Below are positions 2-21,762 of a stretch of DNA of 22,142 nt, one piece after another. Below the pieces are notes generated by a model. That model saw only the letters and a program-made list of their open reading frames with translations, had not been told where the DNA came from and made no database searches. The first letter of the stretch is position 1. Every line of letters starts with the position of its first letter. This stretch comes from a virus. The translations under genes were made by a program, and so were the position numbers. Location of the stretch: the IMG/VR virus record IMGVR_UViG_3300044858_001172, positions 1-22,142 of that record. One strand, given 5' to 3'.

Positions 2-1189
2 GCTGACCGCAATCAGGCCCGTATCGTCTTTGAAGATACAAAACGCATGATTCAGAACTCAGAGCTCAGTGAGCATGTCAAGGTTTACCGAGATGCCATC
101 TTGGTTCCAGCCACGAACAATGTCTACAGAGTGCTATCAGCCGATGCTCCAAGGCACGAAGGTCTCAGTCCGACTATGGTTCTGTTCGATGAGCTTCACG
201 CTCAGCCCAACCGATCACTGTTCGATGTTATGTCGCTGGCCCAAGGAGCTCGTGGCAAGGCATCAACGCTCATTGCCATCACAACAGCGGGTGTCAAGAC
301 AGAAGCAGCATCCGGTAAAGACACGATTGCTTATGAGCTTTATCAGCGAGGTCAGAAGATTACTCGAGGCGAGATAGACGACCCAACCTTCTTTATGGCA
401 TGGTGGGAAGCACCAGCCGAGGCAGATCACCGACTTGAAGAGACTTGGAAGGATGCCAACCCAGGTTTTGACGACATTTGTGCTAAATCCGACTTTGAAA
501 GTGCCGTTCTGAGAACACCAGAGGCAGAATTTCGGACTAAACGCTGCAATCAGTGGGTTTCAACGCAATCTGCATGGCTTCCGACAGGTTCTTGGGACAA
601 ATTGACCGAAGATTTCGAGATTTCGGTTGATGAGGACTATGTTTTGGGCTTTGACGGCTCTTATGCCTCAGATTCCACCGCTTTATGCGTTTGCACCATC
701 CCAAAAGACGGTGAAAAGCCAAAAGTCAAGCTAATTCGCACTTGGGAGAAGAACTTTGGCGTAGATGACGATTCTTGGCGGGTTCCAATGGAAGAAGTCA
801 AGCAAACAATCATTGATTACACCCAGAAATACCCAAAAGTCCGTGAAATAGCCTGTGACCCCTACCGTTGGGCATCAATGATGCAAGAACTTGACGAGTT
901 AGGGCTTCCGATTGTCGAATACAAGACCAACTTGCTAAATCTTATGATTCCAGCAACTCAAAAAGTGTTCGATGCGGTGATGGAACAGACTTTCATGCAC
1001 GATGGCAACCCAGCTCTGGCTCGGCACATTGACAACTGCGTCATCAAGATGGATCACCGAGGACAGAGAGTGACAAAAGAGAGCAGTAACTCAAAGAAGA
1101 AGATTGACAACGCTATCGCCTTCATTATTGCCTACGACAGAGCAACTGTGGGTAGAATGGAAGAGGTAGTGCCACAAGTATTTGTATAG
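2..1189 (+). CDS. terL: Terminase large subunit (5' truncated by window edge)
   Basis: ATPase-nuclease motor that packages phage DNA into the prohead. The frame is open from base 2, before the first ATG at 47, and reads sensibly there (ADRNQARIVFEDTKR), so the gene starts outside the window; 395 residues are visible and the Walker A part is missing. A Walker B-like stretch with the catalytic acidic pair (MVLFDELHA) lies near base 176. The C-terminal half looks like an RNase H-fold nuclease: an acidic motif (GFDGSYASDST) near base 653, ACDPYRW near base 852 and NAIAFIIAYDRA near the end. The family is the HK97/Terminase_1 type. Portal, protease and HK97 capsid downstream give the canonical order. 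The identification is firm; the true length is unknown. Confidence 0.93.
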   Translation, partial: ADRNQARIVFEDTKRMIQNSELSEHVKVYRDAILVPATNNVYRVLSADAPRHEGLSPTMVLFDELHAQPNRSLFDVMSLAQGARGKASTLIAITTAGVKTEAASGKDTIAYELYQRGQKITRGEIDDPTFFMAWWEAPAEADHRLEETWKDANPGFDDICAKSDFESAVLRTPEAEFRTKRCNQWVSTQSAWLPTGSWDKLTEDFEISVDEDYVLGFDGSYASDSTALCVCTIPKDGEKPKVKLIRTWEKNFGVDDDSWRVPMEEVKQTIIDYTQKYPKVREIACDPYRWASMMQELDELGLPIVEYKTNLLNLMIPATQKVFDAVMEQTFMHDGNPALARHIDNCVIKMDHRGQRVTKESSNSKKKIDNAIAFIIAYDRATVGRMEEVVPQVFV

Positions 1190-1198
1190 GCGGTTATT

Positions 1199-1336
1199 TT
1201 GGCAACAGTTTTACAAATCGCAGGAGCCGCACTGGTGACAATAGGCGTAAGCGTTATTTTCCTACCAGCGGGACTAATCGTAGGCGGTATTGCCACTTTA
1301 GTATTCGGTTTAGCGATGGAGCGAGTAAGTGCTTAG
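1199..1336 (+). CDS. Small hydrophobic membrane protein between terminase and portal
   Basis: A 45-codon TTG-started frame fills the gap between terL and portal. Its stop at 1334-1336 overlaps the portal GTG start (1329) by 8 bases, a coupling arrangement like that of the neighbouring genes. The product is almost entirely hydrophobic (ATVLQIAGAALVTIGVSVIF, then proline, then LIVGGIATLVFGLAM) and ends with a short polar tail (ERVSA), so one long or two short helical hairpin membrane segments are expected. The TTG is preceded by a weak AGGCGG. TTG starts are also used by the major tail gene here, so this is not out of character. No function is recognised. Without the overlap and the filled gap it could be dismissed as chance. 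Confidence 0.6.
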   Translation: MATVLQIAGAALVTIGVSVIFLPAGLIVGGIATLVFGLAMERVSA

Positions 1337-2696
1337 TAGATTATTTGAAAAACGAGCAATCTCGTTTCAAACCATCTGGGGATCTGGTGACTTCCTAGAA
1401 ACTCAGAGCAACGCTGGGGTCAGGATTGATTCTGGCACTGCTTTGCATGTCAATCCGGTCTTTTCCGCTGTCTCGCTCATCAGCGACACAATCTCGACAC
1501 TACCCGTAGATGCTTACATCCGCAGAGATGGTGCTCGCTTTGCTTTCCGCCCAAGACCATCATGGATTACCAAGCCAGATGTTGACACAACCAAAGAAGC
1601 CTTCTACGGCTCAATCATTGTCTCGCTACTCCTAGACGGAAACGCATTTATTCGGTTGTATTCAAATTCGTCAGGCGAGATTGTCAACATGACAGTTCTA
1701 AACCCGATGGATGTCGAAATCAAACGCAATGGCATCGGTCAGGTCGGCTTTGTCATCAAAGAAGAGAAGAGAATGCTCTCTTCAGATGAGATTGTCTTTA
1801 TTCCCGATGTAGTTCGCCCAGGACACATCCGTGGAGTGTCAAGAGTAGAAGCACTGAAGGAAAACTTCGGCTTAGCTAAGGCATTAGAAAACTATGCAGC
1901 TAAATTCTTCGGTTCAGGCACTCAGACCTCTGGTGTCATCGAGATTGACGGCAACCTTACGGCAGATCAAGCCAAGGTCATGCAAGAAGCATTCGATTCA
2001 CGCCACAAGGGATGGGCAAAGGCACACAAGACAGCAATCCTGTCGGGCGGAGCGAAATACAAGCCAACTAATGTGCCAAACGACCAAGCTCAGTTCCTAG
2101 ACAGCCGCAGAATGGCTGTTGAAGATGTTGCTCGTGCTTTCAACATTCCACCACACCTACTTGGACTACCAGGCACAAACTCTTATGCATCAGTCGAGCA
2201 GAACAACCTTGCTTGGGTAACTCACTGCCTCCGACCAATCGTTCAGAAGATTGAAGGTGCACTATCACCGCTAATGGCTCGCTACCCAGGTGGAGAGAAC
2301 GCATTTATTCGGTTCAACCTTGATGGCCTACTTCGTGCAGACATCAACTCAAGAATGGCTGCATTTTCGACTGGTTTACAAGCTGGCTTCTTGACAATCA
2401 ACGATGTGAGACGACTTGAGGACTTGACACCAATCATGGATCCGTCAGCCGACACTGTTCGTGTGCCTCTGGCCAATGTCAACATTGATGCCGCCGACCT
2501 ATCTGCTCAGACAGAACGAGTAGACATGGCTCAGAGATTGATTCAGGTTGGATTCGACCCAGTAGACGCTCTGGAGAAACTCGGTCTACCTGCTATTGAT
2601 CACACTGGCGTTCCAAGCGTTCAGTTGCAGAATGCCGGTCAGTCACAAGACCCAGCAGCTGTCAAAGAAACTTACGGGGTAGAAGATGGCAATTAG
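1329..2696 (+). CDS. Portal protein, HK97 family
   Basis: Forms the dodecameric ring at the unique capsid vertex through which DNA enters and to which the neck attaches. The 455-residue length is typical of HK97-type portals. Recognisable segments include the clip/wing region (LLDGNAFIRLY, SSDEIVFIPD), the block GVSRVEALKENFGLAKALEN, and the crown-proximal helix after SYASVEQNNLAW. It starts with GTG inside the end of the small membrane gene, and its last 11 bases overlap the next gene. Two copies of ATTCGGTT (1650, 2307) and one CTTCGGTT (1907) fall inside it, in two different codon phases. The identification is strong from the motifs and from its position after terL. Confidence 0.92.
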   Translation: MLSRLFEKRAISFQTIWGSGDFLETQSNAGVRIDSGTALHVNPVFSAVSLISDTISTLPVDAYIRRDGARFAFRPRPSWITKPDVDTTKEAFYGSIIVSLLLDGNAFIRLYSNSSGEIVNMTVLNPMDVEIKRNGIGQVGFVIKEEKRMLSSDEIVFIPDVVRPGHIRGVSRVEALKENFGLAKALENYAAKFFGSGTQTSGVIEIDGNLTADQAKVMQEAFDSRHKGWAKAHKTAILSGGAKYKPTNVPNDQAQFLDSRRMAVEDVARAFNIPPHLLGLPGTNSYASVEQNNLAWVTHCLRPIVQKIEGALSPLMARYPGGENAFIRFNLDGLLRADINSRMAAFSTGLQAGFLTINDVRRLEDLTPIMDPSADTVRVPLANVNIDAADLSAQTERVDMAQRLIQVGFDPVDALEKLGLPAIDHTGVPSVQLQNAGQSQDPAAVKETYGVEDGN

Positions 2697-2949
2697 CAAT
2701 GGCACAACTTCAGTTGGAACCGTGGCCACTGCTATTGATGGTGTATGGACTAATCCATCAATAATTACCATTCACAATAACGACAACACCGCTGAGGTTT
2801 ATCTTGGTGGAAGTGGTGTAACAATAAGCACTGGGCTACAACTTGTAAAGCTTGAGAGCTATCAATTTCAATTACAACCCCTAGAACAAATCTATTGTGT
2901 AAGCACTAAAAACGGACACAATGTTAGTTGGATGAGGCAGACAATCTAA
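2686..2949 (+). CDS. Small beta-rich virion-type protein of unknown function
   Basis: An 87-residue protein with a threonine- and asparagine-rich, beta-strand-like composition (IITIHNNDNTAEVYLGGSG, then a hydrophobic strand and LQPLEQIYCVS). This pattern resembles small single-domain beta-sandwich proteins often found near portal or fibre genes in tailed phages, whose function is usually not assigned. The ATG at 2686 overlaps the portal stop by 11 bases, and the TAA overlaps the next ATG as TAATG, so it is translated in the same coupled series. A head-decoration or fibre-anchoring role is a guess from position only. No signal peptide or membrane segment is visible. Confidence 0.7.
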   Translation: MAISNGTTSVGTVATAIDGVWTNPSIITIHNNDNTAEVYLGGSGVTISTGLQLVKLESYQFQLQPLEQIYCVSTKNGHNVSWMRQTI

Positions 2950-3293: not shown

Positions 3294-4126
3294 TGTCAGC
3301 CTCTGTCCTAGAGATTACTGAAACAAACACACTTGTTTCGGTTCAAAATTCGGTTGTAAATGTTGGCGTAACTGAAACCAACACAACCGTAACTTTAGGC
3401 AACTCTGGCCCGCAGGGCATTCAAGGTATTCAGGGAGCAGTTGGCCCAGCTAACACGCTCACTATAGATTCGGTTACAGCAAGTGCTCCAGGCGGAGACG
3501 CTGAGGTAACAGTTTCTGGAACTGCACCCAATCAAACTCTTAGCTTTGTCATTCCAAGGGGAGAACAAGGCCCACAAGGTATTCAAGGTGCAACGGGTGC
3601 AACCGGTGCTACTGGAGCCACTGGTGCAACGGGAGCAACAGGTGCAACGGGGCCACAGGGCCCACAGGGTGAGCAAGGTATCCAAGGGGCGACTGGCCCT
3701 CAAGGCGAGACTGGCCCACAAGGGCTACAGGGTGAGCAAGGAATTCAAGGTATTCAGGGTGACACTGGCCCGACAGGCCCACAAGGTGAAACAGGCCCAG
3801 AAGGGCCACAAGGCATACAGGGGGAAACTGGTGCTAGTGGGCCACAGGGCGAACAAGGTATTCAAGGCATTCAAGGAGAGACAGGGCCGCAGGGGCCTCA
3901 AGGTATTCAAGGAGAAACGGGGCCACAAGGGCCACAAGGTATCCAAGGTGCAACAGGAGCAACTGGAGCGACAGGCCCCGCTGGAGTAGTTGCTGCTACT
4001 TCTCCGATTACTTACAACTCAGGAACTCAAACTGTTGGCATTGATGTAAATGCCGCAGGTATCACAATAAACGGCACGGCTGTCGCACTCGGTGGAACTG
4101 TTGTCGTGGAAGCGAGGCTGGCATAA
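3293..4126 (+). CDS. Collagen-like fibre protein (putative head fibre)
   Basis: 277 residues. A beta-rich N-terminus (1-38) leads into a short Gly-X-Y block (39-51). A conserved-looking linker follows ([20 protein letters not shown] to LSFVIPRG), then an uninterrupted Gly-X-Y tract from G90 to G231 (47 triplets), and a C-terminal beta segment ending VVVEARLA. X is mostly P, I, A or E and Y mostly Q or T, typical of bacterial and phage collagens that trimerise without hydroxyproline. A 47-triplet triple helix would be a thin rod of roughly 40 nm. It lies between portal and protease rather than with the tail genes, so a capsid-attached fibre is more likely than a tail fibre (inference). The start is fixed by a TAATG overlap. 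Confidence 0.85.
3560..3985 (+). repeat. Gly-X-Y coding repeat tract
   Basis: Tandem 9-base units coding for [12 protein letters not shown] and EQG triplets. The first part contains seven consecutive ATG tripeptides. Codon choice varies among copies (for example gcaacgggt, gcaaccggt, gctactgga), so the repeats differ at DNA level, which would limit slippage. They generate long spurious frames on both strands. Confidence 0.9.
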
Positions 4127-5718
4127 TGCCCTATTACATAACTGACAAATCTTCAGAATGCTCAAGCTGGGCAGTAGTCAAAGAAGATGGCGAAGTCATG
4201 GCTTGCCACAACACCAAAAAAGAAGCACTTGACCAGATGGTAGCTATCTCATTATCAGAAGGCATTGAGCCAGGTGGCGAAAGAGACATTCGTGCATTAC
4301 CAGGCGACCTCAAAGTCGGTGACTATGTATCTTGGAACTCTTCGGGCGGTAGGGCTCGTGGCGAAATTCAAGAGATTGTAGACAACGGATCTATCAATCC
4401 ACCTAATTCTTCGGTTACAGTCAATGGCACGGAAAAAGACCCTGCTGCCTTGATTCAGGTATACCAGCCAGTCAGAGACGGATGGGAAGATACGGATGTG
4501 TATGTTGCCCACAAGTTCTCCACACTTACAAAGATTGCTCCACTTCCTGAACCCAGTGATGAACCAGAAGATGAAGAAGAAGATGACGATATGGAAGAAA
4601 ACTCCATGTCTGAAACAGAATACCGAGAAGTAAACCTAGAGCCCCCAGCCTACATGCGAGCAGCAGCTCGTAGAGGTCTCAAATACTACGAAGAGGGGTA
4701 TGGCGGAGATGGCTTGGTTGAAAGAACAATCCGTGAGGCGAGAGCGATGGCAGCTGGCAATGTCACTGCTGATAAATGGGTTAGGATTCGGGCTTGGATT
4801 GCTCGTCATCTTCCTGATTTGGATAGTCCCGCCGCAAGACCTGATTCGCCTGATTATCCTAGCCCTGGTGTAGTTGCACACTTGCTTTGGGGATCAGGCC
4901 CATCAAAGAGAGCAGCACAACGAGCACTCACTTATGCAGAAGGTGTAGTTGCTAGAATTGAAGAAGAAAATGAAGGCCGAGCGAAAGGCGAAGCATTGTC
5001 AAAGATAGAAACACGCAGAACTCCAACCTCCATCGAGGTTCGTGAAGAAGGCGATGGCATGAGATTCAGTGGCTACGCTGCTGTATTCAATTCTGCTAGT
5101 GAGCCCCTGCCTTTTATCGAGAGAATCGCACCAGGTGCATTCCGCAAATCCCTGAGAGCTCGCAATGACATCAAGTTCCTTTGGAATCACGATGCTGGCG
5201 AGGTTCTTGGCTCAACTCGTGCTGGAACTCTTATGCTTACAGAAGATGACAAAGGTTTGAGGGTTGATGGTCTACTACCGAACACTTCTCGTGGTCGTGA
5301 TGTTGCTGAGCTGCTACGCCGTGGAGATGTTGACGCAATGAGCTTCGGCTTTAGTGTTCCTGCTGGAGGAGATTCATGGTCAGAGGATGGCTCAGAGAGA
5401 ACCTTGAATTCGGTTCGTCTATTCGAGGTCTCCTTGGTTAGCTGGCCAGCATATACCGCTACGGCTGGCACTGTTGCTGTTCGTGGCCTAGACAAGATTG
5501 CTAAGAGAGCTGACATTGACGCTGATGCTCTAGCAGATGCTGTTTACAAACTTGAGGAAGGCGAAACTCTTACCGAGGATGAGGGTCGTCTAATTCAGCA
5601 AGCCGTAGAAACCCTGATGCCAAAGTCAGAGGGATCAGAGCCTAGCGATAATTCGGTTGGACAGGCTATGCTGGCACTGAAGAAGAAGAAGCTCGAACTA
5701 CTACTGAATGGAATCTAA
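4126..5718 (+). CDS. Prohead protease (S78) with N-terminal accessory domains
   Basis: 530 residues, about 2.5 times a plain HK97 prohead protease. Visible parts: residues 1-50, a small domain (YYITDKSSECSSWAVV) of unknown role; 60-138, a compact beta domain (GDYVSWNSSGGRARGEI to HKFSTLTKI) matching the DUF2945/HVA1 TUDOR-like pattern; an acidic linker 142-160; 165-280, a helical domain (PPAYMRAAARRGLKYY, VVAHLLWGSGPSKRAA) of the kind often fused to phage proteases; and 293-455, the protease, with the likely catalytic His355 in WNHDAG and Ser406 in MSFGFS. The last 75 residues are charged and helical, possibly scaffold-like. The protease trims the capsid delta domain after assembly. The fusion suggests the N-terminal domains are delivered inside the prohead. 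Start by TAATG overlap. Confidence 0.88.
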   Translation: MPYYITDKSSECSSWAVVKEDGEVMACHNTKKEALDQMVAISLSEGIEPGGERDIRALPGDLKVGDYVSWNSSGGRARGEIQEIVDNGSINPPNSSVTVNGTEKDPAALIQVYQPVRDGWEDTDVYVAHKFSTLTKIAPLPEPSDEPEDEEEDDDMEENSMSETEYREVNLEPPAYMRAAARRGLKYYEEGYGGDGLVERTIREARAMAAGNVTADKWVRIRAWIARHLPDLDSPAARPDSPDYPSPGVVAHLLWGSGPSKRAAQRALTYAEGVVARIEEENEGRAKGEALSKIETRRTPTSIEVREEGDGMRFSGYAAVFNSASEPLPFIERIAPGAFRKSLRARNDIKFLWNHDAGEVLGSTRAGTLMLTEDDKGLRVDGLLPNTSRGRDVAELLRRGDVDAMSFGFSVPAGGDSWSEDGSERTLNSVRLFEVSLVSWPAYTATAGTVAVRGLDKIAKRADIDADALADAVYKLEEGETLTEDEGRLIQQAVETLMPKSEGSEPSDNSVGQAMLALKKKKLELLLNGI

Positions 5719-5719
5719 G

Positions 5720-5914
5720 ATGCCAAGCAAAGAAGAAATCAAAAAGGCTCTCCTAGCTGCTGCTGGAAACCCTGAATCAGGTGCAATCGTTTCGGTTGTA
5801 GATGACATGGCTAAGGCAGTAGAGAAGCTTCTGAAGCCAGAAGAAACTGTTGAAGTTGCTTTTGACAAGACCAATAGAGAAACACGGGTCACCGCACCTA
5901 TTGAAAAGCGGTAA
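5720..5914 (+). CDS. Small helical protein between protease and capsid genes
   Basis: 64 residues from ATG 5720 (MPSKEEIKKALLAAAGNPES). An in-frame ATG at 5708 would add four residues and overlap the protease stop. I prefer 5720 because GGA at 5710-5712 is suitably spaced and the sequence from MPSKEE looks like a natural N-terminus. Charged and amphipathic throughout (VVDDMAKAVEKLLKPEE), ending in a basic tail (APIEKR), with no membrane segment. Small proteins in this position occur in many actinobacteriophages without a known role. It is the last gene before a terminator-like hairpin. Confidence 0.7.
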   Translation: MPSKEEIKKALLAAAGNPESGAIVSVVDDMAKAVEKLLKPEETVEVAFDKTNRETRVTAPIEKR

Positions 5915-7254: not shown

Positions 7255-7295
7255 ACCCACCCAAGTTGTAGGTTGCTTGGGTGGGTTTCTTTTTA
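7255..7295 (+). terminator. Strong intrinsic terminator after the capsid gene
   Basis: ACCCACCCAAG (7255-7265) and CTTGGGTGGGT (7276-7286) form a perfect 11-base-pair stem with a 10-base loop, followed by TTCTTTTT. It isolates the capsid transcript from the glycosylation genes. Confidence 0.93.
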
Positions 7296-7307: not shown

Positions 7308-8495
7308 ATGGCAACCTACGACCTACTAAAAGCTGCTATCGCATTCGGTAGCAATTCACCAGGAACACCTACCGGTTACGGACAGCAGGGCAAGCAACTA
7401 ATCACTCGCATGCTTAGGCATGGAATGAAGGTAGCTGCTCTCAGTAACTACGGACTTGAAGGCCAGCAAACAGAGCTAGTATTCGGTTCAAATAAAATCC
7501 CACACTACCCAAAGGGACTGACACTTTATTCTGCGGATGTCTACCCAATTTGGGCAGCAGACTTCCACGGCAAGCATCCTGACTACAAGCCGTATCTAAT
7601 GACGCTCTACGATGTTTGGGTTTACAACCAGATGGACTATAAGGGCGACATAATCTCATGGGTTCCGATGGATCACCTAACCATCACACCAGCGGTTAGA
7701 GAGTTTCTAATAAAACCAAATGTCATTCCTGTAACGATGGCTCCACATGGTCAAGAGATTATGGAAGGGCTCGGTTTGGAATCTACCTACATCCCTCACG
7801 GTATAGATACGAATGTCTACAAACCTACATTTGAGATTTCAGGAAAAGATGTAAGAGAGTTTATGGGAATTCCTGAAAATGCATTTTTAGTCGGAATAGT
7901 TGCAGCTAACAAATCAAATGGTCAGATTCATCGCAAGGCTTACGCTGAAAACCTGCTTGCCTTCGCTATGCATCTCAAATCGCATCCAGATAGTTTGCTT
8001 TACATTCACACTGAACCAGGCAGAGGCTACGGTGGATTTGACATTGCTGTTCTACTAAAGGCAATGGGAATACCTAAAGACAATGTTCTTATGCCAGACC
8101 CATACTTACTCAGAGCCGGATACCCAGAAGAGCACATGGCTGGCTTCTACACCGCAATGAATGTGTTGCTTAGCACCTCATACGGAGAAGGCTTCGGTAT
8201 ACCGACAGTCGAGGCACAAGCCTGTGGCACACGAGTTATCACAAGTAACTACGCCGCATCTAAAGACCTAGCCTCAGAAGATAGCTGGAAGATTGATGGT
8301 CAGCCGTTCTGGGATGAGGCTCAAGGAAGCTTCTTCCAGATACCTTCGGTCAATTCGATAGTCAGGGCACTAAACGAAGCTTATGAAGCAGATCGTGCTA
8401 AAAGCGAAAAGGCGATTGCCTTTGCTAAGCAATTTGATGCTGACAAAGTGTGGAACGAGAACTGGGTTCCATTCTTCAAGAAGCTGTTGAAGTGA
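7308..8495 (+). CDS. GT-B glycosyltransferase, GT4-like
   Basis: 395 residues. I chose ATG 7308 over a longer frame from GTG 7281, because that start lies inside the terminator stem and its added residues (MGFFLYTVT) come from the T-run. The protein has two Rossmann-like halves. The N-terminal half holds a glycine-rich acceptor-side loop (SNSPGTPTGYGQQG), and the middle has an IPHGIDTNVYKP segment typical of GT4 enzymes. The C-terminal half holds LVGIVAANKSNGQ and the EX7E motif GEGFGIPTVEAQACGT that binds the nucleotide-sugar donor. Donor and acceptor cannot be told. First gene of a four-gene coupled operon inserted between capsid and connector genes, so virion glycosylation is a reasonable hypothesis. 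Confidence 0.88.
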   Translation: MATYDLLKAAIAFGSNSPGTPTGYGQQGKQLITRMLRHGMKVAALSNYGLEGQQTELVFGSNKIPHYPKGLTLYSADVYPIWAADFHGKHPDYKPYLMTLYDVWVYNQMDYKGDIISWVPMDHLTITPAVREFLIKPNVIPVTMAPHGQEIMEGLGLESTYIPHGIDTNVYKPTFEISGKDVREFMGIPENAFLVGIVAANKSNGQIHRKAYAENLLAFAMHLKSHPDSLLYIHTEPGRGYGGFDIAVLLKAMGIPKDNVLMPDPYLLRAGYPEEHMAGFYTAMNVLLSTSYGEGFGIPTVEAQACGTRVITSNYAASKDLASEDSWKIDGQPFWDEAQGSFFQIPSVNSIVRALNEAYEADRAKSEKAIAFAKQFDADKVWNENWVPFFKKLLK

Positions 8496-9514
8496 AGATA
8501 ACTGCCCTAGCTCCATTCCCGTTTGTAGGAGCTCAATTTGGTGGCGGGGAAAGAATCTACAACTTACTTAGCCGTGTGGAAAACGAAATAGATGTTTTGA
8601 TTCCAACATTCGGTGAACCGCAACGCATGAGGCACAACAACCTAACGCTTACAGCATTACCGTTGCCTCACTATGTGCGTCACAAGGAATGGGATTTAGC
8701 AGTTATAGAAGGCACTCCTGAGACCTTCAAATCAGTCCTAGGAATCATTGAGCCTGACCTAATTATTCTTGAGCATCCTTGGCAAGTAGAGGCAATCCAA
8801 ACTCAAAGATTCGTTTATGATGCACACAATAACGAAACAAGAATCAAACAACTTATCGGTGGCCCAGAAATACAAGAAGCTACTGCCAGAGTGGAAAAGA
8901 TTGCTTTACAAGCAGATCATGTGACTTATTGCTCTACTGAAGATGAGATTCAGTCTGATAGTCCGATGACTTTGATACCAAATGGTGTCAATCTGCCACC
9001 AGAGGTAAACACAAAAGGATTCGGTTCAGACATTCTTCTCTTTGTCGGTAGCGGTCATCCGCCAAACATAGGTGCGGCTATGGCCCTTGCAAGTATTGCC
9101 GAGTTCTTGCCAGATTACCAGATAGTCATTGCTGGGCAGTGCAGTCAATTCATTCGTAGCAATCAGCCAAATGTCAAACTGCTGGGGCATGTAGAGCCAT
9201 CAACCCTACATCAGCTATTCCTATCAGCTCATGCATTTGTAAACCTTATGGGGGCAGGATCAGGCACCTCACTAAAGGTCATCAAGGCAATCAGCTATGG
9301 ACTACCAGTTATTAGCACCATAGTTGGAGCTAGGGGCTACAGCACGGGTTGTTTGATAGCTAGAACGCCACAGGAAGTCACAGAATGGCTAGATAAGCTA
9401 AAGACACCACTTCAATACAAAAGTGTCTCAGAATCGAATCTAGAGCTTGCCAAGGGGTATTCTTGGGATGTTATTGGCAAACGATTCAATGAAACAGTAT
9501 TCTCGGTGGTCTGA
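8492..9514 (+). CDS. GT-B glycosyltransferase, GT4-like, with degenerate donor motif
   Basis: 340 residues from GTG 8492, whose GTGA overlaps the upstream TGA. The frame is open further upstream, but the sequence from VKITALAPFPFVGAQFGGG is a classic GT4 N-terminus (beta strand, then glycine-rich loop). Later segments: DLIILEHPWQ, VYDAHNNE, VTYCSTEDE, TLIPNGVNLPPE, ILLFVGSGHPPNIGA (start of the C-terminal Rossmann domain) and GSGTSLKVIKAISYGLPVI, the donor-binding position. The first acidic residue of EX7E appears to be replaced there (serine/glycine context), with a lysine motif instead, so chemistry or donor may differ from the first enzyme. It shares the operon with another GT-B, a GT-A and an epimerase. 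Confidence 0.85.
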   Translation: MKITALAPFPFVGAQFGGGERIYNLLSRVENEIDVLIPTFGEPQRMRHNNLTLTALPLPHYVRHKEWDLAVIEGTPETFKSVLGIIEPDLIILEHPWQVEAIQTQRFVYDAHNNETRIKQLIGGPEIQEATARVEKIALQADHVTYCSTEDEIQSDSPMTLIPNGVNLPPEVNTKGFGSDILLFVGSGHPPNIGAAMALASIAEFLPDYQIVIAGQCSQFIRSNQPNVKLLGHVEPSTLHQLFLSAHAFVNLMGAGSGTSLKVIKAISYGLPVISTIVGARGYSTGCLIARTPQEVTEWLDKLKTPLQYKSVSESNLELAKGYSWDVIGKRFNETVFSVV

Positions 9515-10170
9515 TGAAACTTATAGTTCCAGTCCTAAACCGCTATGACCTGCTCAACAGAATGATTGAGAGCATTGACTATCCAGTTGAAAGACTTTTG
9601 ATTATTGACAATGGCTGGGGAATTCATCAAGGTTTGGAAGGGCCCGTATCAAACAATCCAAATGTGTTGGCAATGGATGTAATAAACATTTATAGCAACC
9701 TAGGTATAGCACCTGCTTGGAATCTAGGAGTAAAGAATTACCCCTTTGAAGAAGTCTTTTACTTCACTTCAAATGATTGTGTGTTTGCTCCAGGGACTTT
9801 ACAAAAACTTCAGCAAGAATCCGCCGCAGACAAAGTGACAATCTCTGAGATGTGGCCTCATTGGCAACTATTTTCGGTTGGAGCAAAAGTCTTTGAAGCC
9901 TGTGGGTTATTCGATGAAGCTATCTTCCCGATGAACTTTGAAGATGATGAATTTGAATGGAGGGTTACAGAAATGGGGTTTTCAGTAACCAAAGCCAATT
10001 TGCCCATGATCCATGACGGGCAAATGACCTTCAAGAGCAACAATCACTATGCTGCTAGGAACTCAGAAACTTACAGAGCCAACGAAGCTTACTTCAATCA
10101 GAAAAAACAAGAGAATCGACTAAATTCAGGAGAATGGTCTTTGGTCATACGGAGAAGGAATAACTGGTGA
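9514..10170 (+). CDS. GT-A glycosyltransferase, GT2-like
   Basis: 218 residues, start fixed by a TGATG overlap. It begins with the GT2 signature strand and loop (MKLIVPVLNRYDLLNRMIES), then LLIIDNG and the conserved SNLGIAPAWNLGVK helix that contacts the nucleotide. The metal-binding DXD position appears as TSNDCVF. The catalytic region follows, with GLFDEAIFPMNFEDDEFEWR and a late conserved histidine (MIHDG). Most relatives are cytosolic or peripheral and need no membrane segment, and none is visible. The 3' end overlaps the epimerase start by four bases. Likely adds one sugar of the glycan built by this operon; the donor is not deducible. Confidence 0.85.
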   Translation: MKLIVPVLNRYDLLNRMIESIDYPVERLLIIDNGWGIHQGLEGPVSNNPNVLAMDVINIYSNLGIAPAWNLGVKNYPFEEVFYFTSNDCVFAPGTLQKLQQESAADKVTISEMWPHWQLFSVGAKVFEACGLFDEAIFPMNFEDDEFEWRVTEMGFSVTKANLPMIHDGQMTFKSNNHYAARNSETYRANEAYFNQKKQENRLNSGEWSLVIRRRNNW

Positions 10171-12189: not shown

Positions 12190-12603
12190 TTGGCAAAGTT
12201 CATTGCTACAGGCACCAAGGTGACCTTGAACGGTAACGATTTCTCCAGCTCGTGTGCGAGAGCAGAGCTGGTGATCAACGCCGCCGAGGTGACCACAACA
12301 GATTTCGGTTCAAATGGCTGGACTGAAGTTATTGGGGGCCTAAAATCAGGTCAGGTTTCACTTGACTTCCACAGCGACTTTGGAACAGGTGCTGTATCCC
12401 GTATTTTCCAGCCTTTAGTTGGAACAATCGGAACAGTAGTTCTAATCGCTGCTAACGGAACTGCTGCATCGCAGAACACCCCTGCATATACAGCAACCGT
12501 GCTAATCAACAGCTTCACCCCAGTTAGCGGTGCAGTTGGAGACCTAAGCACATTCTCAGTTACCTTCCCGACCACCGGAGAAGTTAGCTACGCAACTGCA
12601 TAA
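12190..12603 (+). CDS. Major tail (tube) protein
   Basis: 137 residues, small for the family but with the expected features: IATGTKVTLNGNDFSSSCARAE at the start, a long beta-sandwich and the final strand VTFPTTGEVSYATA. It starts at TTG 12190, set by a strong AAAAGGAG ribosome site five bases upstream; no ATG is nearby in frame. Its place immediately before the frameshifting chaperone and the tape measure is diagnostic. It contains one TTCGGTT (12304) read as Phe-Gly-Ser. Confidence 0.85.
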   Translation: MAKFIATGTKVTLNGNDFSSSCARAELVINAAEVTTTDFGSNGWTEVIGGLKSGQVSLDFHSDFGTGAVSRIFQPLVGTIGTVVLIAANGTAASQNTPAYTATVLINSFTPVSGAVGDLSTFSVTFPTTGEVSYATA

Positions 12604-12612: not shown

Positions 12613-12864
12613 TTGAAAATCAACCTACAAGTTACTTACGAGAATGGAACTAAGAAGCTCGTTGTTTGCAACGCAGCAGATCTAGTTGCTTTCGAAGATA
12701 AGTATGAAGTATCAATTTCAGCTATCGGAGCCGAGACCAAGTTGAGCCACTTGCTCTTCTTGGCTTGGCATTCCGAGAAGCGAACCGGCTCGACAAAAGA
12801 CGACTTCGACAAGTGGCTGGAAACAGTTGCTTCGGTTGGAGATTCTGACAGCGACCCAAAATAA
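12613..12864 (+). CDS. Tail assembly chaperone, short form (G)
   Basis: 83 residues from TTG 12613, with GGAG five bases upstream. An acidic and amphipathic protein (VTYENGTKKLVV, LVAFEDKYEVSISA, TKLSHLLFLAWHSEKR) ending in a flexible tail (SVGDSDSDPK). In lambda-like phages the short form G and the frameshifted GT coat the tape measure during tail tube assembly. The last two sense codons lie in a CCCAAAA slip site. The length is short for G but common in small siphophages of actinobacteria. Confidence 0.85.
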   Translation: MKINLQVTYENGTKKLVVCNAADLVAFEDKYEVSISAIGAETKLSHLLFLAWHSEKRTGSTKDDFDKWLETVASVGDSDSDPK

Positions 12865-13064: not shown

Positions 13065-13772
13065 TTGGCGGTAATCTTGGCTTTTCCCAAAATAGCAACA
13101 GAACTAGGCATGAAGTCTGGGGGATTCGGTTCAGCCAACACTCTGCGAATTGAGATTACTAACTGGAATGAAGTCATGGCGGTTATCAAAGACCTTGACC
13201 AGACTTACATCAAGACCCTTAGAAGAGACTTCCGAGAGATAGGTAAAGACGCTCAGGGAGCTGTCAAAAGGGCTATTCCAAACAAAGCCAACCCGCCTAT
13301 GTCAGGTATGCGTCAGGTGCACTTTGGTCGCTTGGCTTGGGGTAGCACGCATGGCAAGGGAGCAAAGCCCTCTAAGTCGGTTCTAATTCAGTTGCCAAAT
13401 ACCCGTAAAAAGAAATACCGTGAGATGGAAAGAATCCCCATTCTTCGGTTGCAAATCGGATCTCCAGCCACAGTTCTATTTGACATGGGTGGTCGTGCAA
13501 GATACGCCAAGGGCCGTAAGGGCCTAACCCCTATCTATGACTACATGTATACAATCAACGGTCAAAAAGTCCCAGGCAAGCGTCAGCACCGTGTAGTGCC
13601 AATGGCCTTTGCAAAAGGAACTGCAAATGCTAAGAGCAAACTACAAATGACTGCTTCCCGCATTGTCTACCCAGCAGCAGAAAAGGCAATGCCAGCAGTT
13701 ACTCGTAAAATTAGACAAAAGATTTTTGAAATCAATCAGAAGATTGAACTCGAGTTGCTAAGGAAGAGCTAA
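13065..13772 (+). CDS. Basic minor virion protein, gp10-like neck or tail component
   Basis: 235 residues, strongly basic. The TTG at 13065 has AAGGA (13056-13060) just upstream; TTG 13077 and ATG 13110 are alternatives. The part after the first 25 residues (LRIEITNWNEVMAVIKDLDQ, then LRRDFREIGKDAQGAVKRAIP) resembles the helix of HK97 gp10-like neck proteins and the minor tail proteins that lie before the tape measure in many actinobacteriophages. The middle has RQVHFGRLAWGSTHGKGA and a VLFDMGGRARYAKG loop. It ends in a long charged helix. The role is uncertain: in the classic order gp10 comes before the tail terminator, so it may be a tail-tube or tape-measure partner instead. Confidence 0.65.
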   Translation: MAVILAFPKIATELGMKSGGFGSANTLRIEITNWNEVMAVIKDLDQTYIKTLRRDFREIGKDAQGAVKRAIPNKANPPMSGMRQVHFGRLAWGSTHGKGAKPSKSVLIQLPNTRKKKYREMERIPILRLQIGSPATVLFDMGGRARYAKGRKGLTPIYDYMYTINGQKVPGKRQHRVVPMAFAKGTANAKSKLQMTASRIVYPAAEKAMPAVTRKIRQKIFEINQKIELELLRKS

Positions 13773-16700
13773 ATGGCAGGAAAGATAAATGTCAATCTAA
13801 CCACGATTGTCCAAGGCTTTGCTCGTGCTACTCAGCAGTTCAATCAACTCGGTCAGGGCATCAATAACCTTGGTAAGGCAGCAGGTTTAGCCGGTCTAGC
13901 ATTTACCGCATTCCAGGTCGGAATGAGGGGTGCCGACTTTGCGGTTGATGCCATCTCTGGAGCTAGAGACCTTGAGCGTAACCTGCTCGGTCTCAAGTCT
14001 GTATTTGAGCAAGTCACTCCTCAGATGCGTAACTTTTCTAAAGTTGCCATAGATGTTGGTCTATCTCAAAACGAAGCAGCTAAGGCTTCAACATTTATTG
14101 GTTCGGTTCTAAAGCAATCTGGCTTTTCGATTGAAGAAACTGCCGACCTAACTGAGCGTCTGGTTAGGTTGGGAACTGACCTATCGCTGACCTATGGATA
14201 CGATGTTCAAGAAGCTTTGTTGGGTATGACTGCTCTCTTCCGTGGAGAGTATGACCCGATTGAGAAGTTCGGTGTTGCTCTGAAGCAATCCGAAATCAAC
14301 TCGGAACTAGCAGCAAGAAAACTAGATCATCTGACTGGTGCAGCTAGAAGATTTGCAGAACAGCAAATCCGTGTAGAGCTTCTATTCCAGCGATCTGCCG
14401 ATGCCCAGGGTGCATTTGAGCGTGGCACTGGAACCCTTGCTGTAGAACAACTCAAGCTGGCTGCCACCTTCAATAACATGCGTGACACGGTTGCATTCAA
14501 TCTGCTACCTGCCCTAGGACAGCTCACACAATCTTTGCGGGAATCACTTGAAGGCTATGAGCCTGAAATCAAAGAGATTTTCAATGACCTAGTTCCAATC
14601 ATCCAGAGCCTAAACACAACGCTGATGCCAGCTCTTGCCAAGCTGGGTATGGCTGTTATTGAAACATTCGGTCAGGTAGTCAAGCTAATTGGAGCCATGC
14701 TTGACCCCACAACTAGGGTTGGCGAATCCGTCTCGGCACTATTTATCCAGATACAGTCGCTCTTCCAGACAATCACTGGCGAGCAGTTAACTATTGAAGC
14801 TGTATTTGCTGGTATTACCGAGGCTGTTCGGTTTGTGGCAGATGCTATTCAAAGCGTTATTTACTTGGTTGAAAACACGGTCATTGGCCTCAAGGTCTTG
14901 GGAGACATGGCTTATGCCTTCTTTACTGGAGACTGGAGCAGACTACTCAATACTGACTGGACAGGCCAGATAAAGTCTCAAATTGCCATCAAGGATGCTG
15001 TAAATGCTCAAAGACTTGCAGTTGTTCAGCTCAATCAAGAGATTGCTAATCAGAAGGATGCTCTTGAGCGAGGCAACCGAGCTTGGGCTAATTCATGGAT
15101 GGCCCGTGGTGAGTGGGCTATCAAAGAAGGTCTTGTTCCTGACCCTAAGCAGATAATCACTGGCACGGATTCAGATGCCGATACAAAGACCAAGAAGGCA
15201 ATCAAAGACTATGTTGCCGACTTCCAAAAGAATCTACAAGATGAAATTCAAAAGCAGACCGCTACTGAGCAGCTAAGGCTTCGTGGTGCTTCTGAGGGCT
15301 TGATTAGCTCCATCCTTGCTGGTGAAGGCTGGATGAAGGTTTGGCAGCAAATCAAGTCAGGCAAGATTGTTCTTGCAGACCTACAAAATCAGTTTTACAG
15401 GACAGCAGCTGGAGCTAAAGAACTAGCAGCAGAAGCTAAAAAAGCCGCCGATGAAATAGAACAATATAACGAAGAAGTTACCGCAATCGATACACGCCTT
15501 GAGGAAGAACTAAAGGCGATTGCTGAAAAGGCTAAAGAAGCCAGGATGGGCTTTGCTGATCTTTTGGCTGGCTTTGATGTTTTACCAACCATTGAGCGTG
15601 CTATGGGCAGGTTTGAGGAGCAATTTGTTTCTCAGCTTGATTCCATCGAAAACGCACTCAAGTCTGCATTCCAGAATAAAGACCTTCTACAAGAGGGCTA
15701 TGACAACCTCCGTGCTTATGCACGAGCTGAGCTTGCTGAGCTTCAAAAGATTGGTCGTCAGCGTGACGAACTAGCCGAGCGATTCGACCTAGCCAAGGGC
15801 TTGATTGATAACTACAAGCGAGCCTTTACTGCTGCCCTTGATCTAACCTCACTATTCGGTCAGCTAAAAGAAGAGACTGAGACCCGCACCGTAACCTCCG
15901 TAAGCCGTGCTCTGATGCGTCTGGGAGGCTCTATGCGAGAGTTTGAGGTCACAATCTCTTCTACCTATGAAGAGACCATAGGTGGCATCCAAAACAAGAC
16001 ACAAGGCATCCTAGAGGGCTTTAGGGCTATGGCTGAGAAGGCCCGCACCTTTGCCGAGAATCTACGCAAGCTCCGTGATATGGGATTGAACGGCATGCTA
16101 TTCAACCAGTTGGTCGAGGCTGGTATTGAGGCTGGTGGAGAAACTGCCCAGGCTCTAGTAGAGGGTGGCAAGGACACAATCAATGAGCTCAATGATTTGT
16201 TTGAAGAGATTGATGCTGTAGGTGGTTCTCTAGGTGAGGAAGTTGCTTCTTCGCTCTACGGCACTGGCATTGACATGGCTAACGGGCTACTCGAGGGTAT
16301 TCGGTCAAAGCAAGCTGAGCTGGAGAATCAAGCTCGTGTCATGGCTCAAGCCTTCAACGCCGCCTTCCAAGCATCTCTGAGCGTTCAGGTAGACATTGCT
16401 GCCAAGGCTGCTGCCGATGCTGCTAGGGCAACTGCTGCTAGCGAGATTGCTGCTATTCCAGTCCCAGAGGCCCTCAAGGAGCCGCCAAAGATTGATCAAG
16501 CTGCTCTGACGAGAATCCGTGAACTAATTGCTCAAGCAAGTGCCTACATAACTAGCGTAGGAGACGCTACAAAACGAGCTGGTGCTGAAGTCAAGAGAAA
16601 CATCTACAGAAGCCTTGAAGCAGATATTGAAGCAGGTAGAGCCATTGACCTATCGGGTATTCGGTCAGGTATGAGCACGGCAGAGCTTGCTGCTGCTGCC

Positions 16701-16853: not shown

Positions 16854-18070
16854 TGGCAATGCCAATCGAGAAGGTTGAAGTAGGTTTCGACACTAGCTTC
16901 TCTGGAGCAGGAAACTTCTTTGTTCTTGACGATGCTACAAAGGGTCAGCTAGATAATACTTCCTACCCATTGGGCGGATTGACTTTTATTGATGTTACTG
17001 ACAGGGTAAGAAACTTCAGCATCTCTAGGGGTCGCTCTAACCTATTCTCAGCCTTCCCAGCGGGTCAGCTAAATGTTGAGTTCAATAACCACGACAGGGC
17101 TTTCGATCCGCTATACGCTCAGTCGCCATTCGCCGGCAACATCGTGCCTAGGCGTGAAATCCGTGTATCAACAGACGATGTAGTTCAGTATGTCGGTTGG
17201 ATAGATGACTGGGGATTCAGCTATTTGCCCAACGGAGATTCGGTTGCAGAAGCTATCGCCTATGACGCTACAAGCATTATCTCTGGTCAGACCTTGGCTG
17301 CTGGAACACCCACTGCCCAGCTCACAGGTGCTCGTGTTTCTAACATCCTTGACCAAATCAACTGGTCGCCAGAGGAAAGAAACATAGAAGCAGGTGTAGC
17401 AACCCTAGGCACGGCAGTAATTGATGCCAATACAAATGCTATGAATTACCTACAGACCATTGCTCTATCTGAGCCAGGCTTGGTATTCGTAGACAAGATT
17501 GGTCGTCTAACTTTCCTAGATCGCACGCAAAGCCCTACCTCTACAGGCTTAGTTCAGTTCGGTGGAACAGGCATTCCATTCCAGTCGGTAGATGTCAGCT
17601 ATGGATCTGACAACCTCTACAACGAAGTAGTCCTAGACCGAGTAGGTGGAGGAACGGCGACAGCCACAGACACCCAAAGTGTCACAGATTACGGTCTTAG
17701 AACCCTCAGTCAGTCTGGCCTATTGCTGAATACCGACCTAGCCCTAGCAGAACTCGCCTTAGTGCTCGCCCAGCAATACTCACAGCCTGAATACAGATTC
17801 AGCAGCCTAGAGGTCGCTATTCACAAACTTGACCCCGCTGAGCAGGAAGATGTGCTGGGCTTAGAGCTCGGTTCGATAGCAAAGATAGTTTTCACCCCTA
17901 ACGGCATAGGAGACGCAATCCAGCGTTTCGTGCAGGTAATCTCAATAAATCACACGGTAAACCCACAAAACCACTTTATAGAGTTTGGCTTCCAGTCACT
18001 TGACGCTGCCTATCTAGTCCTAGATGATGCAGAGTTTGGTAAGCTAGACCTATACAGTTTGAGCTGGTAA
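16853..18070 (+). CDS. Tail tip / minor tail protein
   Basis: 405 residues. The TAATG overlap with the tape measure stop sets the start, although a second ATG lies two codons on. The protein is beta-rich. Segments VTDRVRNFSISRGRSNLFS, LNVEFNNHDRAFDPLYA and IRVSTDDVVQYVGWIDDWGF match the minor tail proteins that follow the tape measure in many actinobacteriophages and act as distal tail/hub components. A short motif near the N-terminus (VLDDATKGQLD, 24-34) recurs at the C-terminus (VLDDAEFGKLD, 389-399). No separate distal tail and tail-associated lysin genes are present, so this may be the main tip component. Contains one ATTCGGTT at 17238. Confidence 0.8.
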   Translation: MAMPIEKVEVGFDTSFSGAGNFFVLDDATKGQLDNTSYPLGGLTFIDVTDRVRNFSISRGRSNLFSAFPAGQLNVEFNNHDRAFDPLYAQSPFAGNIVPRREIRVSTDDVVQYVGWIDDWGFSYLPNGDSVAEAIAYDATSIISGQTLAAGTPTAQLTGARVSNILDQINWSPEERNIEAGVATLGTAVIDANTNAMNYLQTIALSEPGLVFVDKIGRLTFLDRTQSPTSTGLVQFGGTGIPFQSVDVSYGSDNLYNEVVLDRVGGGTATATDTQSVTDYGLRTLSQSGLLLNTDLALAELALVLAQQYSQPEYRFSSLEVAIHKLDPAEQEDVLGLELGSIAKIVFTPNGIGDAIQRFVQVISINHTVNPQNHFIEFGFQSLDAAYLVLDDAEFGKLDLYSLSW

Positions 18071-21236: not shown

Positions 21237-21450
21237 TTGGAAGCATCGCCGTAGGCTTATTTACATGAGCTTTGCGTTGTCTGCCCTAATGATTCTTTTC
21301 GGTGCGGCTACCTACGCCTCTGACAGTTCGGTTAGCAGGGAACTGATAATCGGGGGAGTTGCCTTGATTTCTATAATCCTTACCGCTTATACTGCATTTG
21401 CTACATACGAAGATGTAAAGATAAGGAAGCGGGACAATGAAGATATTTAG
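21229..21450 (+). CDS. Putative holin with two membrane segments
   Basis: 73 residues overlapping the endolysin end by eight bases. Basic N-terminus (MPSWKHRRR), membrane segment 1 (LIYMSFALSALMILFGAAT), a short loop, membrane segment 2 (ELIIGGVALISIILTAYTAF) and a charged tail (VKIRKRDNEDI). The two-helix, basic-tail layout and position fit a class II holin or a holin partner. No family is recognised by name. Confidence 0.7.
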   Translation: MPSWKHRRRLIYMSFALSALMILFGAATYASDSSVSRELIIGGVALISIILTAYTAFATYEDVKIRKRDNEDI

Positions 21451-21634
21451 CGTTGCATTTTGGAGAGATTATGCAGGAGAGCGAGCTGTAAAGACCGTAG
21501 CTCAGTCGGCAATAGCTTTCCTAGGAACAGGATCTATGGGTCTGTTTACGATTGATTGGGTAAGCTTGGCTTCGGTTTCACTTGGTGCCGGATTTCTTTC
21601 AATCCTGACCTCAGTTGCTTTCAAAAAGGACTAA
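21437..21634 (+). CDS. Holin, r1t-like
   Basis: 65 residues overlapping the previous gene by 14 bases. The sequence FWRDYAGERAVKTVAQSAIA, then FLGTGSMGLFTIDWVSLASV and SLGAGFLSILTSVAF is close to the r1t-type holin pattern common in actinobacteriophages: amphipathic start, two membrane segments, short lysine tail (FKKD). It is the last gene of the late region; a structured non-coding stretch and a terminator follow. Confidence 0.85.
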   Translation: MKIFSVAFWRDYAGERAVKTVAQSAIAFLGTGSMGLFTIDWVSLASVSLGAGFLSILTSVAFKKD

Positions 21635-21644: not shown

Positions 21645-21702
21645 CTCGGCTGTTATTCGACATCCTTGTTCGCTTGTCCATAAGCCTCCTAGCTAAGCCG
21701 AG
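21645..21702 (+). other. Long-range inverted repeat at the end of the late operon
   Basis: CTCGGCT (21645-21651) is complementary to AGCCGAG (21696-21702), enclosing 44 bases. It could cap the 3' end of the late mRNA just before the terminator. I tested it for a tRNA and rejected that. No gene is seen in 21635-21705. Confidence 0.4.
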
Positions 21703-21705
21703 TAG

Positions 21706-21733
21706 CCCCCGTCTAAATGGCGGGGGTTTCTTA
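21706..21733 (+). terminator. Intrinsic terminator of the late operon
   Basis: CCCCCGTC (21706-21713) pairs with GGCGGGGG (21719-21726), eight pairs with one G-T, followed by TTTCTTATTT. It ends right before a TTGACA box. Confidence 0.88.
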
Positions 21734-21734
21734 T

Positions 21735-21762
21735 TTGACAAACATTCGGTTAGTCGTATACT
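21735..21762 (+). promoter_or_regulatory. Consensus sigma-70-type promoter for a short RNA
   Basis: TTGACA (21735-21740), a 16-base spacer and TATACT (21757-21762), the best promoter in the window. Transcription would begin near 21769. The spacer contains ATTCGGTT (21744-21751), the only intergenic copy of a heptamer otherwise found in coding sequence. There is no downstream gene on this strand in the window before a terminator. Confidence 0.75.

What the first reader, a model, noticed from the sequence alone, without database searches (positions are those of the whole stretch)
622..21751. Over-represented, strictly one-strand heptamer TTCGGTT (consensus ATTCGGTT)
I count 28 TTCGGTT on the + strand against 0 on the - strand; a random heptamer is expected about 1.4 times per strand in this length. 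Fifteen are the octamer ATTCGGTT (expected about 0.3). Codon phase varies: TCG-GTT (Ser-Val) in most, TTC-GGT-T in six, CGG centred in four, and one non-coding, so protein sequence alone does not explain it. The core hexamer TTCGGT is also polar (about 44 against 2). Copies thin out in the capsid gene and in the fibre region (17.2-21.3 kb). Possible roles: asymmetric operator ('stoperator' as in L5-like phages), Chi-like recombination site, packaging or replication polarity mark, or an RNA-level signal, since polarity equals transcription direction. It does not match the Chi sequences I know from E. coli, B. subtilis, L. lactis or S. aureus.
Basis: partly seen in the sequence, partly recalled or inferred. 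Interest (0 to 1): 0.82.

Follow-up and report, generated by a model that had tools for sequence, protein, structure and literature searches.

The report
One-way DNA word in actinobacterial phages
A family of viruses, probably of freshwater actinobacteria, carries one short DNA word dozens of times, almost always facing the same way, with an extra cluster beside a DNA-damage type switch, which looks like the docking sites of one direction-reading protein that has not been identified.

Summary
A protein- and codon-preserving shuffle gives 2.6 (most 9 of 1000) against 26 in genes. It is the most enriched 7-mer of the window's genes, and its positions turn over among relatives. In ten mapped genomes TTCGGT/TTCGGTT is 3.6-7.5-fold enriched in late and early genes.

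Outside the window I found 1-9 same-facing copies, often about 11 bp apart, directly 3' of an HNH gene and before LexA-type boxes, in 66 of 73 loci. Array word and scattered word vary together for two of the four main variants tested, so one factor probably reads both.

Right of the array, in mostly rightward genes, forward sites vanish and reverse sites are enriched (38 modules: 7 against 77; partly codon usage). Polarity is therefore not simply transcription direction.

Best reading: dispersed operators of one asymmetric DNA-binding regulator, stoperator-like (0.4). Main rival: a Chi-like polarity signal (0.25). Neither reader nor host was found; no sampled candidate host genome is comparably enriched.

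The parts
622..628 (+). TTCGGTT in terminase large subunit gene, TCG-GTT phase
1303..1310 (+). ATTCGGTT in small hydrophobic open frame 1199-1336, TTC-GGT phase
1650..1657 (+). ATTCGGTT, portal gene, CGG phase
1908..1914 (+). TTCGGTT, portal gene, TTC-GGT phase
2307..2314 (+). ATTCGGTT, portal gene, CGG phase
3337..3343 (+). TTCGGTT, collagen-like gene 3293-4126
3348..3355 (+). ATTCGGTT, core 12 bp after the previous site
3468..3475 (+). ATTCGGTT, collagen-like gene
4410..4416 (+). TTCGGTT, head maturation protease gene
5408..5415 (+). ATTCGGTT, protease gene
5651..5658 (+). ATTCGGTT, protease gene
5791..5797 (+). TTCGGTT, ORF 5708-5914
7481..7488 (+). ATTCGGTT, glycosyltransferase gene, TTC-GGT phase
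9019..9026 (+). ATTCGGTT, ORF 8495-9514, TTC-GGT phase
9873..9879 (+). TTCGGTT, ORF 9514-10170
10240..10247 (+). ATTCGGTT, ORF 10167-11165
10330..10337 (+). ATTCGGTT, ORF 10167-11165
11242..11249 (+). ATTCGGTT, head-tail connector gene
12304..12310 (+). TTCGGTT, ORF 12190-12603, TTC-GGT phase
12831..12837 (+). TTCGGTT, ORF 12613-12864
13124..13131 (+). ATTCGGTT, ORF 13065-13772, TTC-GGT phase
13444..13450 (+). TTCGGTT, ORF 13065-13772, CGG phase
14102..14108 (+). TTCGGTT, tape measure gene
14827..14833 (+). TTCGGTT, tape measure gene, CGG phase
17238..17245 (+). ATTCGGTT, ORF 16853-18070
21327..21333 (+). TTCGGTT, ORF 21229-21450
21571..21577 (+). TTCGGTT, ORF 21437-21634
21744..21751 (+). ATTCGGTT, the one non-coding copy, between two convergent genes
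21835..22137 (-). WhiB-like gene, leftward; its homologues were used to test whether polarity follows transcription

Best explanation
TTCGGT(T/C), usually preceded by A, is the asymmetric binding site of one sequence-specific DNA-binding factor. Its main operator is an array of 1-9 same-facing sites, often about 11 bp apart, in the gap between the end of the early genes (HNH gene) and a LexA-type promoter. The window does not include that gap; the sister phage g1 (contig G001) does. Dozens of further sites, all facing the same way, are spread through the late and early genes and kept by synonymous choice. By architecture the closest known logic is the operator-plus-stoperator system of L5-like mycobacteriophages: the factor would block or terminate rightward transcription through structural and replication genes, insulate the LexA-controlled module from read-through, and leave that module free of forward sites so that it can be expressed. 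Shown: the sites, enrichment, polarity, array, LexA-type boxes, forward 5-mer depletion in the module, joint variation of array and scattered words. Inferred: the factor itself, that it binds DNA, that LexA acts there, and that transcription is stopped.
For: Over-representation beyond protein and codon usage and in ten mapped genomes: TTCGGTT 119 against 20.5 in late genes, 35 against 4.7 in early genes. Position turnover with sites kept: L055, 64% DNA identity, has 11 sites, and 2 of 17 aligned window sites are shared. Array: 66 of 73 HNH loci with at least 200 bp of following sequence have one or more TTCGGT (11 of them only one), 65 also a LexA-type box at <=1 mismatch; 84 of 194 spacings are 11 bp, with further peaks at 21-25 and 33-34, as for proteins side by side on DNA. 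Boxes GAAC-N4-GTTC follow the array and in several loci a TTGACA-type promoter by eye; the box fits the Streptomyces LexA motif tCGAAC-N4-GNNCGa (PMC9380542, passages). A second unit, TTCGGT or its variants then LexA-type boxes, follows another gene's end in L284, L303 and L297. Same last-base preference in the array (T 164, C 83 of 249) and in scattered sites (T and C highest). Joint variation: where the array has TTCGGTY, scattered TTCGGTY is 6.7-fold enriched (30 records), otherwise 2.1-fold (6 records), p 0.0003; TTCAGTY 3.5 against 1.6 (2 and 34 records), p 0.01. Forward TTCGG depleted in the module: 3 against 11.6, range 5-17 of 100 shuffles.
Against: Reverse sites are enriched in the module: TTCGG 58 against 36.4, range 26-50, AACCGAA 33 against 13.9, max 25 of 500; the 6- and 7-mer there (17 against 11.3; 9 against 4.2) stay inside the shuffle range. 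A one-way transcription block does not explain this. Reverse TTCGGT is also somewhat low in late (24 against 35.9) and early genes (17 against 23.6), within range. In leftward whiB the word faces with the genome (20 of 80 loci, 19 at one homologous position), never with the gene. Stoperators of L5 are 13-mers in short intergenic spaces (PMC9283540, passages); here 27 of 28 are intragenic and the core is 6-7 bp. No repressor was recognised (by eye; no systematic search), and no early gene separates motif-rich from motif-poor relatives. Of 59 LexA-type boxes elsewhere in the loci only 15 have TCGGTY within 170 bp upstream. CTCGGTY (p 0.17) and TTTGGTY (p 0.46) do not vary with the array significantly.
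Confidence: 0.4

Rival explanations
1. Chi-like or replication-polarity signal: the word is read by a DNA motor or nuclease (host RecBCD/AdnAB type, or the phage's own YqaJ exonuclease and partners) and its orientation is set by position on the linear genome: forward from the terminase end to the array, reverse from the array to the other end, so polarity switches at the array and at the genome ends.
For: Polarity switches right of the array though most genes keep their direction and is forward again beyond TerS. Four contigs (G783, G787, G789, G790) begin 44-79 bp before the TerS match, which suggests a genome end there; G784's match starts at base 20 and is partial. Leftward genes carry genome-facing sites. 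Short word, all codon phases, positions turn over. Lambdoid phages lacking recombinases over-represent Chi, and lambdoid Chi sites are concentrated between replication genes and terminase (PMC3784561, abstract and passages; section 8).
Against: No comparable enrichment in 299 family or 394 class genomes; in 820 kb of one single-contig small genome TTCGGTT ranks 214th among 7-mers (153 in sense against 81.7), with only a mild strand bias, 89/72 in the first 420 kb and 60/93 in the last 400 kb fetched. Periodic arrays tied to LexA boxes are not a Chi feature known to me. These phages encode a YqaJ-type recombination nuclease. The true host is unknown, and Chi in E. coli itself is only 2.3-fold enriched, so a modest host signal could be missed.
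Confidence: 0.25
2. Iterons: the array is the replication origin and the word is the initiator's site; scattered copies tune initiation or mark a strand for priming.
For: Direct repeats at ~11 bp beside a promoter-like region; polarity switch at the array.
Against: The putative replication proteins of g1, G785 and G782 look different by eye while the word is the same; each finds relatives in only 6 of 11 other motif-rich phages. Scattered polar iterons through 30 kb have no precedent known to me. Skews at four-fold sites shift gradually, with no clear break at the array.
Confidence: 0.12
3. Orientation trap for a Type III or similar two-site restriction enzyme, as for phage T7, whose 36 EcoP15I sites are all head-to-tail.
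For: One-way sites protect T7 from EcoP15I (PMC12707154, passages).
Against: Protection explains loss of one orientation, not a several-fold gain of the other nor an array beside LexA-type boxes.
Confidence: 0.06
4. RNA-level signal in the transcripts, for example a termination or decay mark.
For: In the window polarity equals transcription direction; arrays sit just after the ends of genes.
Against: Reverse enrichment in a mostly rightward module and genome-facing copies in leftward whiB.
Confidence: 0.08
5. By-product of protein sequence, codon usage or codon-pair habit.
For: The codon expectation itself is skewed in some segments: 42.5 reverse against 5.2 forward in the modules.
Against: Shuffles, three codon phases, the non-coding array and word specificity.
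Confidence: 0.01

Closest known systems
Stoperators of L5-like (Cluster A) mycobacteriophages
   Same: Many asymmetric sites over the genome, one orientation in the bulk of the genome, plus sites at a promoter; actinophage.
   Different: 6-7 bp core against 13-mer; nearly all intragenic here; orientation reverses in a module whose genes mostly do not; no repressor identified; main array sits beside LexA-type boxes.
Chi (RecBCD hotspot) in lambdoid phages
   Same: Short, over-represented, independent of codon phase; dense stretch between replication genes and terminase.
   Different: Higher density (about 0.2 Chi/kb in lambdoids), periodic array beside LexA-type boxes, word varies within one phage group, no comparable host enrichment found, YqaJ nuclease present.
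KOPS / SRS translocase-orienting words
   Same: Polar words that face a common point from both sides (recalled).
   Different: Known from chromosomes and dif (recalled); here on a ~30-35 kb phage with the switch at a LexA-type promoter.
T7 EcoP15I site orientation
   Same: All copies of an asymmetric word head-to-tail in a phage.
   Different: Explained by avoidance of the opposite orientation; no array known to me.

Membership tests
L5-type stoperators | asymmetric site repeated across the phage genome | tested here: met
L5-type stoperators | orientation follows direction of transcription | tested here: not met
   holds in late and early genes, reversed in the mostly rightward module and not followed in whiB
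L5-type stoperators | sites in short intergenic spaces and at promoters | tested here: not met
   27 of 28 intragenic in the window; but an array at a promoter-like region in relatives
L5-type stoperators | 13 bp site bound by a phage immunity repressor | tested here: inconclusive
   core 6-7 bp, array consensus about 11-12 bp; no repressor recognised by eye, no systematic search
L5-type stoperators | bound repressor stops elongation | not testable with these tools
   needs bench work
Chi | over-represented and polar in the phage | tested here: met
Chi | over-represented and leading-strand biased in the host | tested here: inconclusive
   host unknown; no comparable enrichment in sampled genomes, mild strand bias in one
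Chi | protects DNA from or redirects a nuclease | not testable with these tools
   needs bench work
Iteron origin | direct repeats at the origin bound by a matching initiator | tested here: inconclusive
   repeats yes; origin not located; putative initiators differ between phages with the same word
Type III site orientation (T7-like) | opposite orientation avoided, no need for excess of the other | tested here: not met
   large excess of one orientation; the opposite is at most mildly depleted

The most novel reading that the evidence does not exclude
A genome-wide, direction-reading DNA code of a phage group: dispersed words face a pivot array beside a LexA-type promoter from both sides of the linear genome, independent of transcription, and array and dispersed words vary together. 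It is neither Chi, KOPS nor stoperator but a new way to give a phage genome an internal direction, for example for tracking from site to promoter, loop formation or end-specific processing.
Probability: 0.3. Interest if true: 0.88.

Novelty: new variant of a known kind. Interest (0 to 1): 0.72.

Why it matters
Polar words that organise whole genomes (Chi, KOPS, stoperators) are few, and each led to a machine. Here sequence alone gives the word, its variation together with an array, and a switch point beside LexA-type boxes, in uncultured actinophages.

Tried and rejected
Host Chi by enrichment: ATTCGGTT in 299 genomes of the family and 394 of the class of MAG G008 never exceeds about 0.08/kb on both strands (my reading of the tables), against 0.68/kb on one strand in the window. 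260 kb of contigs of G008: 14 in sense against 13.2 expected. Samples of 7-40 kb from ten small genomes: from none to about three-fold (G120 9 against 2.9; G239 7 against 3.5, antisense 9 against 3.5). 820 kb of G212: 153 in sense against 81.7, antisense 138 against 101.4, rank 214. Arrays ATTCGGT-N4-ATTCGGT in hosts: 8 of 398 genomes, one hit each, about the chance number by my estimate.

Gene that explains the word: a C5 methyltransferase, named by eye, looked specific, but motif-rich L121 (TTCGGTT 0/15) shows another gene at that place by eye. In one search, ORFs of three reference genomes found in at least 5 of 11 other motif-rich and in none of 4 motif-poor phages are all in the late region. 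Mutation source: neighbours not depleted. UUCG tetraloop: the base before is mostly A, not C. Other words: the best 7-mer of 19 records without the word on top has z 5.0-9.2, against 13.4 and 14.6 in g1 and g2; but L055, L016, L120 and L123 reach only 6.4-9.3 with the word, and in L121 it is not among the top five. Capsid relatives in genome contigs: one, 47%; capsid profile in 398 family genomes: 6 matches at 1e-20, strong only in MAG G008. The search with the G785 leftward gene returned only its own contig. In print: 'TTCGGTT' with 'phage' gave five unrelated papers; LexA, SOS box, phage and Microbacteriaceae together gave none.

Caveats on counts: the search for related loci kept the best 80 of 170, 195 and 94. 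Ten of 12 genomes were mapped; G791 and g2 lacked a marker and were dropped. The ten further contigs were chosen among HNH relatives. ORFs in most scripts come from a longest-ORF picker, so some false ORFs enter; in modules it gives 23.4 kb rightward and 5.7 kb leftward. Loci are related to one another; one search thinned modules to 38 of 65, one search used 36 records, and no tree correction was made.


Full report
Names. g1 = contig G001 (L098+L099), g2 = G002 (L100+L101), g5, g6, g7 = G005-G007, all turned so that genes run right; TerS = small terminase subunit; module = the small-gene stretch between array and TerS.

What was checked. TTCGGTT is on the + strand 28 times and on the - strand never; ATTCGGTT 15/0; TTCGGT 44/2. 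A shuffle that keeps every protein and total codon usage gives 2.6 on average and at most 9 of 1000 against 26 in genes. Nineteen of 58 Ser-Val pairs use TCG-GTT (3.0 expected) and 17 of the 19 are preceded by T. Among all 7-mers of the window's genes scored against such a shuffle TTCGGTT is first (z 13.8); the best word not overlapping it has z 6.7. In the window the core TTCGGT is exact; T, C or G is favoured after it and A before it. In relatives CTCGGTY is also enriched, 3.4-4.1-fold.

What the window is. A virus record of 22,142 bp from a phage with terminase, portal, head protease, capsid, glycosyltransferase, connector, tape measure and WhiB genes. The nearest named phage is Pontimonas phage phiPsal1, capsid 66%, terminase 56%, so the host is probably an actinobacterium; this is inference. 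g2 is 99.96% identical to window 1330-22142; g1 is a near relative that extends into the early region.

Relatives. Most close relatives keep the word and its polarity; L019 (1/1), L020 (5/2) and L023 (0/0) do so weakly or not. Sites turn over: in L016 11 of 16 aligned window sites are shared while the locus has 16; in L021 1 of 6 while it has 6; in L055 2 of 17 while it has 11. Most of the more distant capsid relatives lack the word or its polarity; L055 and L069 keep it. Ten full contigs of 27-37 kb, chosen among HNH relatives, show TTCGGTT 27/1, 26/2, 20/1, 26/0, 14/5, 13/0, 19/8, 16/1, 13/3 and 12/1 in the order G782-G791, turned so that genes run right.

The array. A scan for three neighbouring copies led to relatives with tandem copies just 3' of an HNH gene. 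Among 80 HNH relatives, 73 have at least 200 bp after the gene; 66 of these have one to nine TTCGGT (11 have one), 65 have both the word and a LexA-type box at one mismatch or less, and 7 have no TTCGGT. Of 194 spacings 84 are 11 bp, with peaks near multiples of 11; the unit is about GATTCGGTYRG. After the boxes comes, in several loci by eye, a TTGACA-type promoter, and then small mostly rightward genes up to TerS. Among relatives poor in the word, L109 and phiPsal1 have no copy in the stretch after the HNH gene, g7 none, g6 one, and the g5 contig ends about 60 bp after the gene. The array lies outside the window; in g1 it has three copies and three boxes.

One reader for array and scattered sites. 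Both prefer T then C after the core. Where the array has TTCGGTY the scattered word is 6.7-fold enriched (30 records), where not 2.1-fold (6 records), p 0.0003; TTCAGTY 3.5 against 1.6 (2 and 34 records, p 0.01); CTCGGTY 4.1 against 3.4 (p 0.17); TTTGGTY 1.5 against 1.3 (p 0.46). The last two do not support joint variation. Four minor variants were also scored: TTCCGTY p 0.045 with one record, TTCGGTA p 0.18 with one record, two not in any array. No correction for tests or ancestry was made.

Polarity. In ten of 12 genomes that could be mapped TTCGGT forward/reverse is 301/26 in late genes, 102/21 in early genes, 44/1 in the array and 2/21 in the module, ten of the 21 from G788. In 38 non-redundant modules, 106 kb, it is 7/77. 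Codon usage explains part: in rightward CDS of the modules reverse 66 against 42.5 expected (max 61 of 500), AACCGAA 33 against 13.9 (max 25), forward 3 against 5.2, within range. With per-genome shuffles TTCGG in the module is 3 against 11.6 forward and 58 against 36.4 reverse, both outside 100 shuffles, while the 6- and 7-mer stay inside. In late and early genes reverse TTCGGT is 24 against 35.9 and 17 against 23.6, both inside the range. In 80 whiB loci the gene carries 20 genome-facing and no gene-facing copies, but 19 of 20 are one homologous position. A leftward gene of G785 has one genome-facing copy; a leftward 208-codon ORF of G784 has none. Exceptions: in the L284/L303 group a second array-and-box unit inside the module faces forward. 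Four contigs begin 44-79 bp before the TerS match, so I place a genome end near TerS, by inference.

Mechanism. The ~11 bp spacing, the place between a gene end and LexA-type boxes, and the joint variation favour a DNA-binding regulator with a main operator and dispersed sites, as in L5-like phages, whose 13-mer sites follow transcription and lose function when reversed (PMC9283540, passages). The reverse enrichment in a mostly rightward module does not fit that logic and favours a signal read along the DNA, as for Chi. Lambdoid phages without recombinases over-represent Chi (median O/E 3.12), and Chi is concentrated between replication genes and terminase (PMC3784561, abstract and passages; section 8). 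I weigh the two at 0.40 and 0.25. No candidate reader separates motif-rich from motif-poor genomes, so it may be a conserved phage protein of changed specificity or a host factor. Host-family genomes sampled show no comparable enrichment, but the host is not known.

Novelty. I found no report of this word in the library (open-licence papers only). The kind, a polar dispersed site, is known; the coupling to LexA-type boxes, the array that varies with the scattered sites, and the switch of polarity within mostly one transcription direction are, to my knowledge, not.

Noticed in passing
g1 11625-11701 and homologous places in L258-L334: One to three LexA/SOS-type boxes GAAC-N4-GTTC in front of a module of small genes; 54 of 73 loci have a perfect one within 250 bp after the HNH gene. 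These phages may be switched by the host SOS response.
   Followed up: partly
g1 4288-4845 and 4616-5587; L123 3291-4593 (-): A gene that looks by eye like a C5 cytosine methyltransferase lies in two overlapping frames in both phages, which may be two genes or a frameshift.
   Followed up: no
window, coding strand: CTGCAG and AGGAGG are absent from genes (12.1 and 10.7 expected by shuffle): possible restriction-site and ribosome-binding-like avoidance.
   Followed up: no
window, coding strand: TCAAAGA is the most enriched 7-mer not overlapping the word (15 against 2.9).
   Followed up: no
G007 (L107, L108): A relative poor in the word has GGATCTC/GAGATCC enriched on both strands (20 and 19 against about 3), a palindromic word of another kind.
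   Followed up: no
window 1199-1336: Small hydrophobic open frame between terminase and portal, start TTG. A similar-looking ORF at the same place in G785 has homologues in 8 of 11 motif-rich and 0 of 4 motif-poor phages; homology to the window's frame was not tested.
   Followed up: partly
window 3293-4126 and 7281-11165: A collagen-like repeat gene, and a glycosyltransferase gene followed by further genes that look like sugar genes, inside the structural operon.
   Followed up: no
G008 (MAG), contigs C7, C29, C59, C87, C197: A Microbacteriaceae MAG contains several contigs of such phages; the bulk sample has GC 60% against 51-54% for the phage contigs, so it may not be their host.
   Followed up: partly
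L191, L142, L163, L159: Contigs without detected protein similarity to g1/g2 share a cluster of four or five TTCGGTT with spacings 42, 141, 12, 11.
   Followed up: no
L089 (phiPsal1) 16110-16683: GTGGTGG is strongly one-sided (22/1), but many copies crowd in one stretch and it does not stand out against the codon shuffle.
   Followed up: partly
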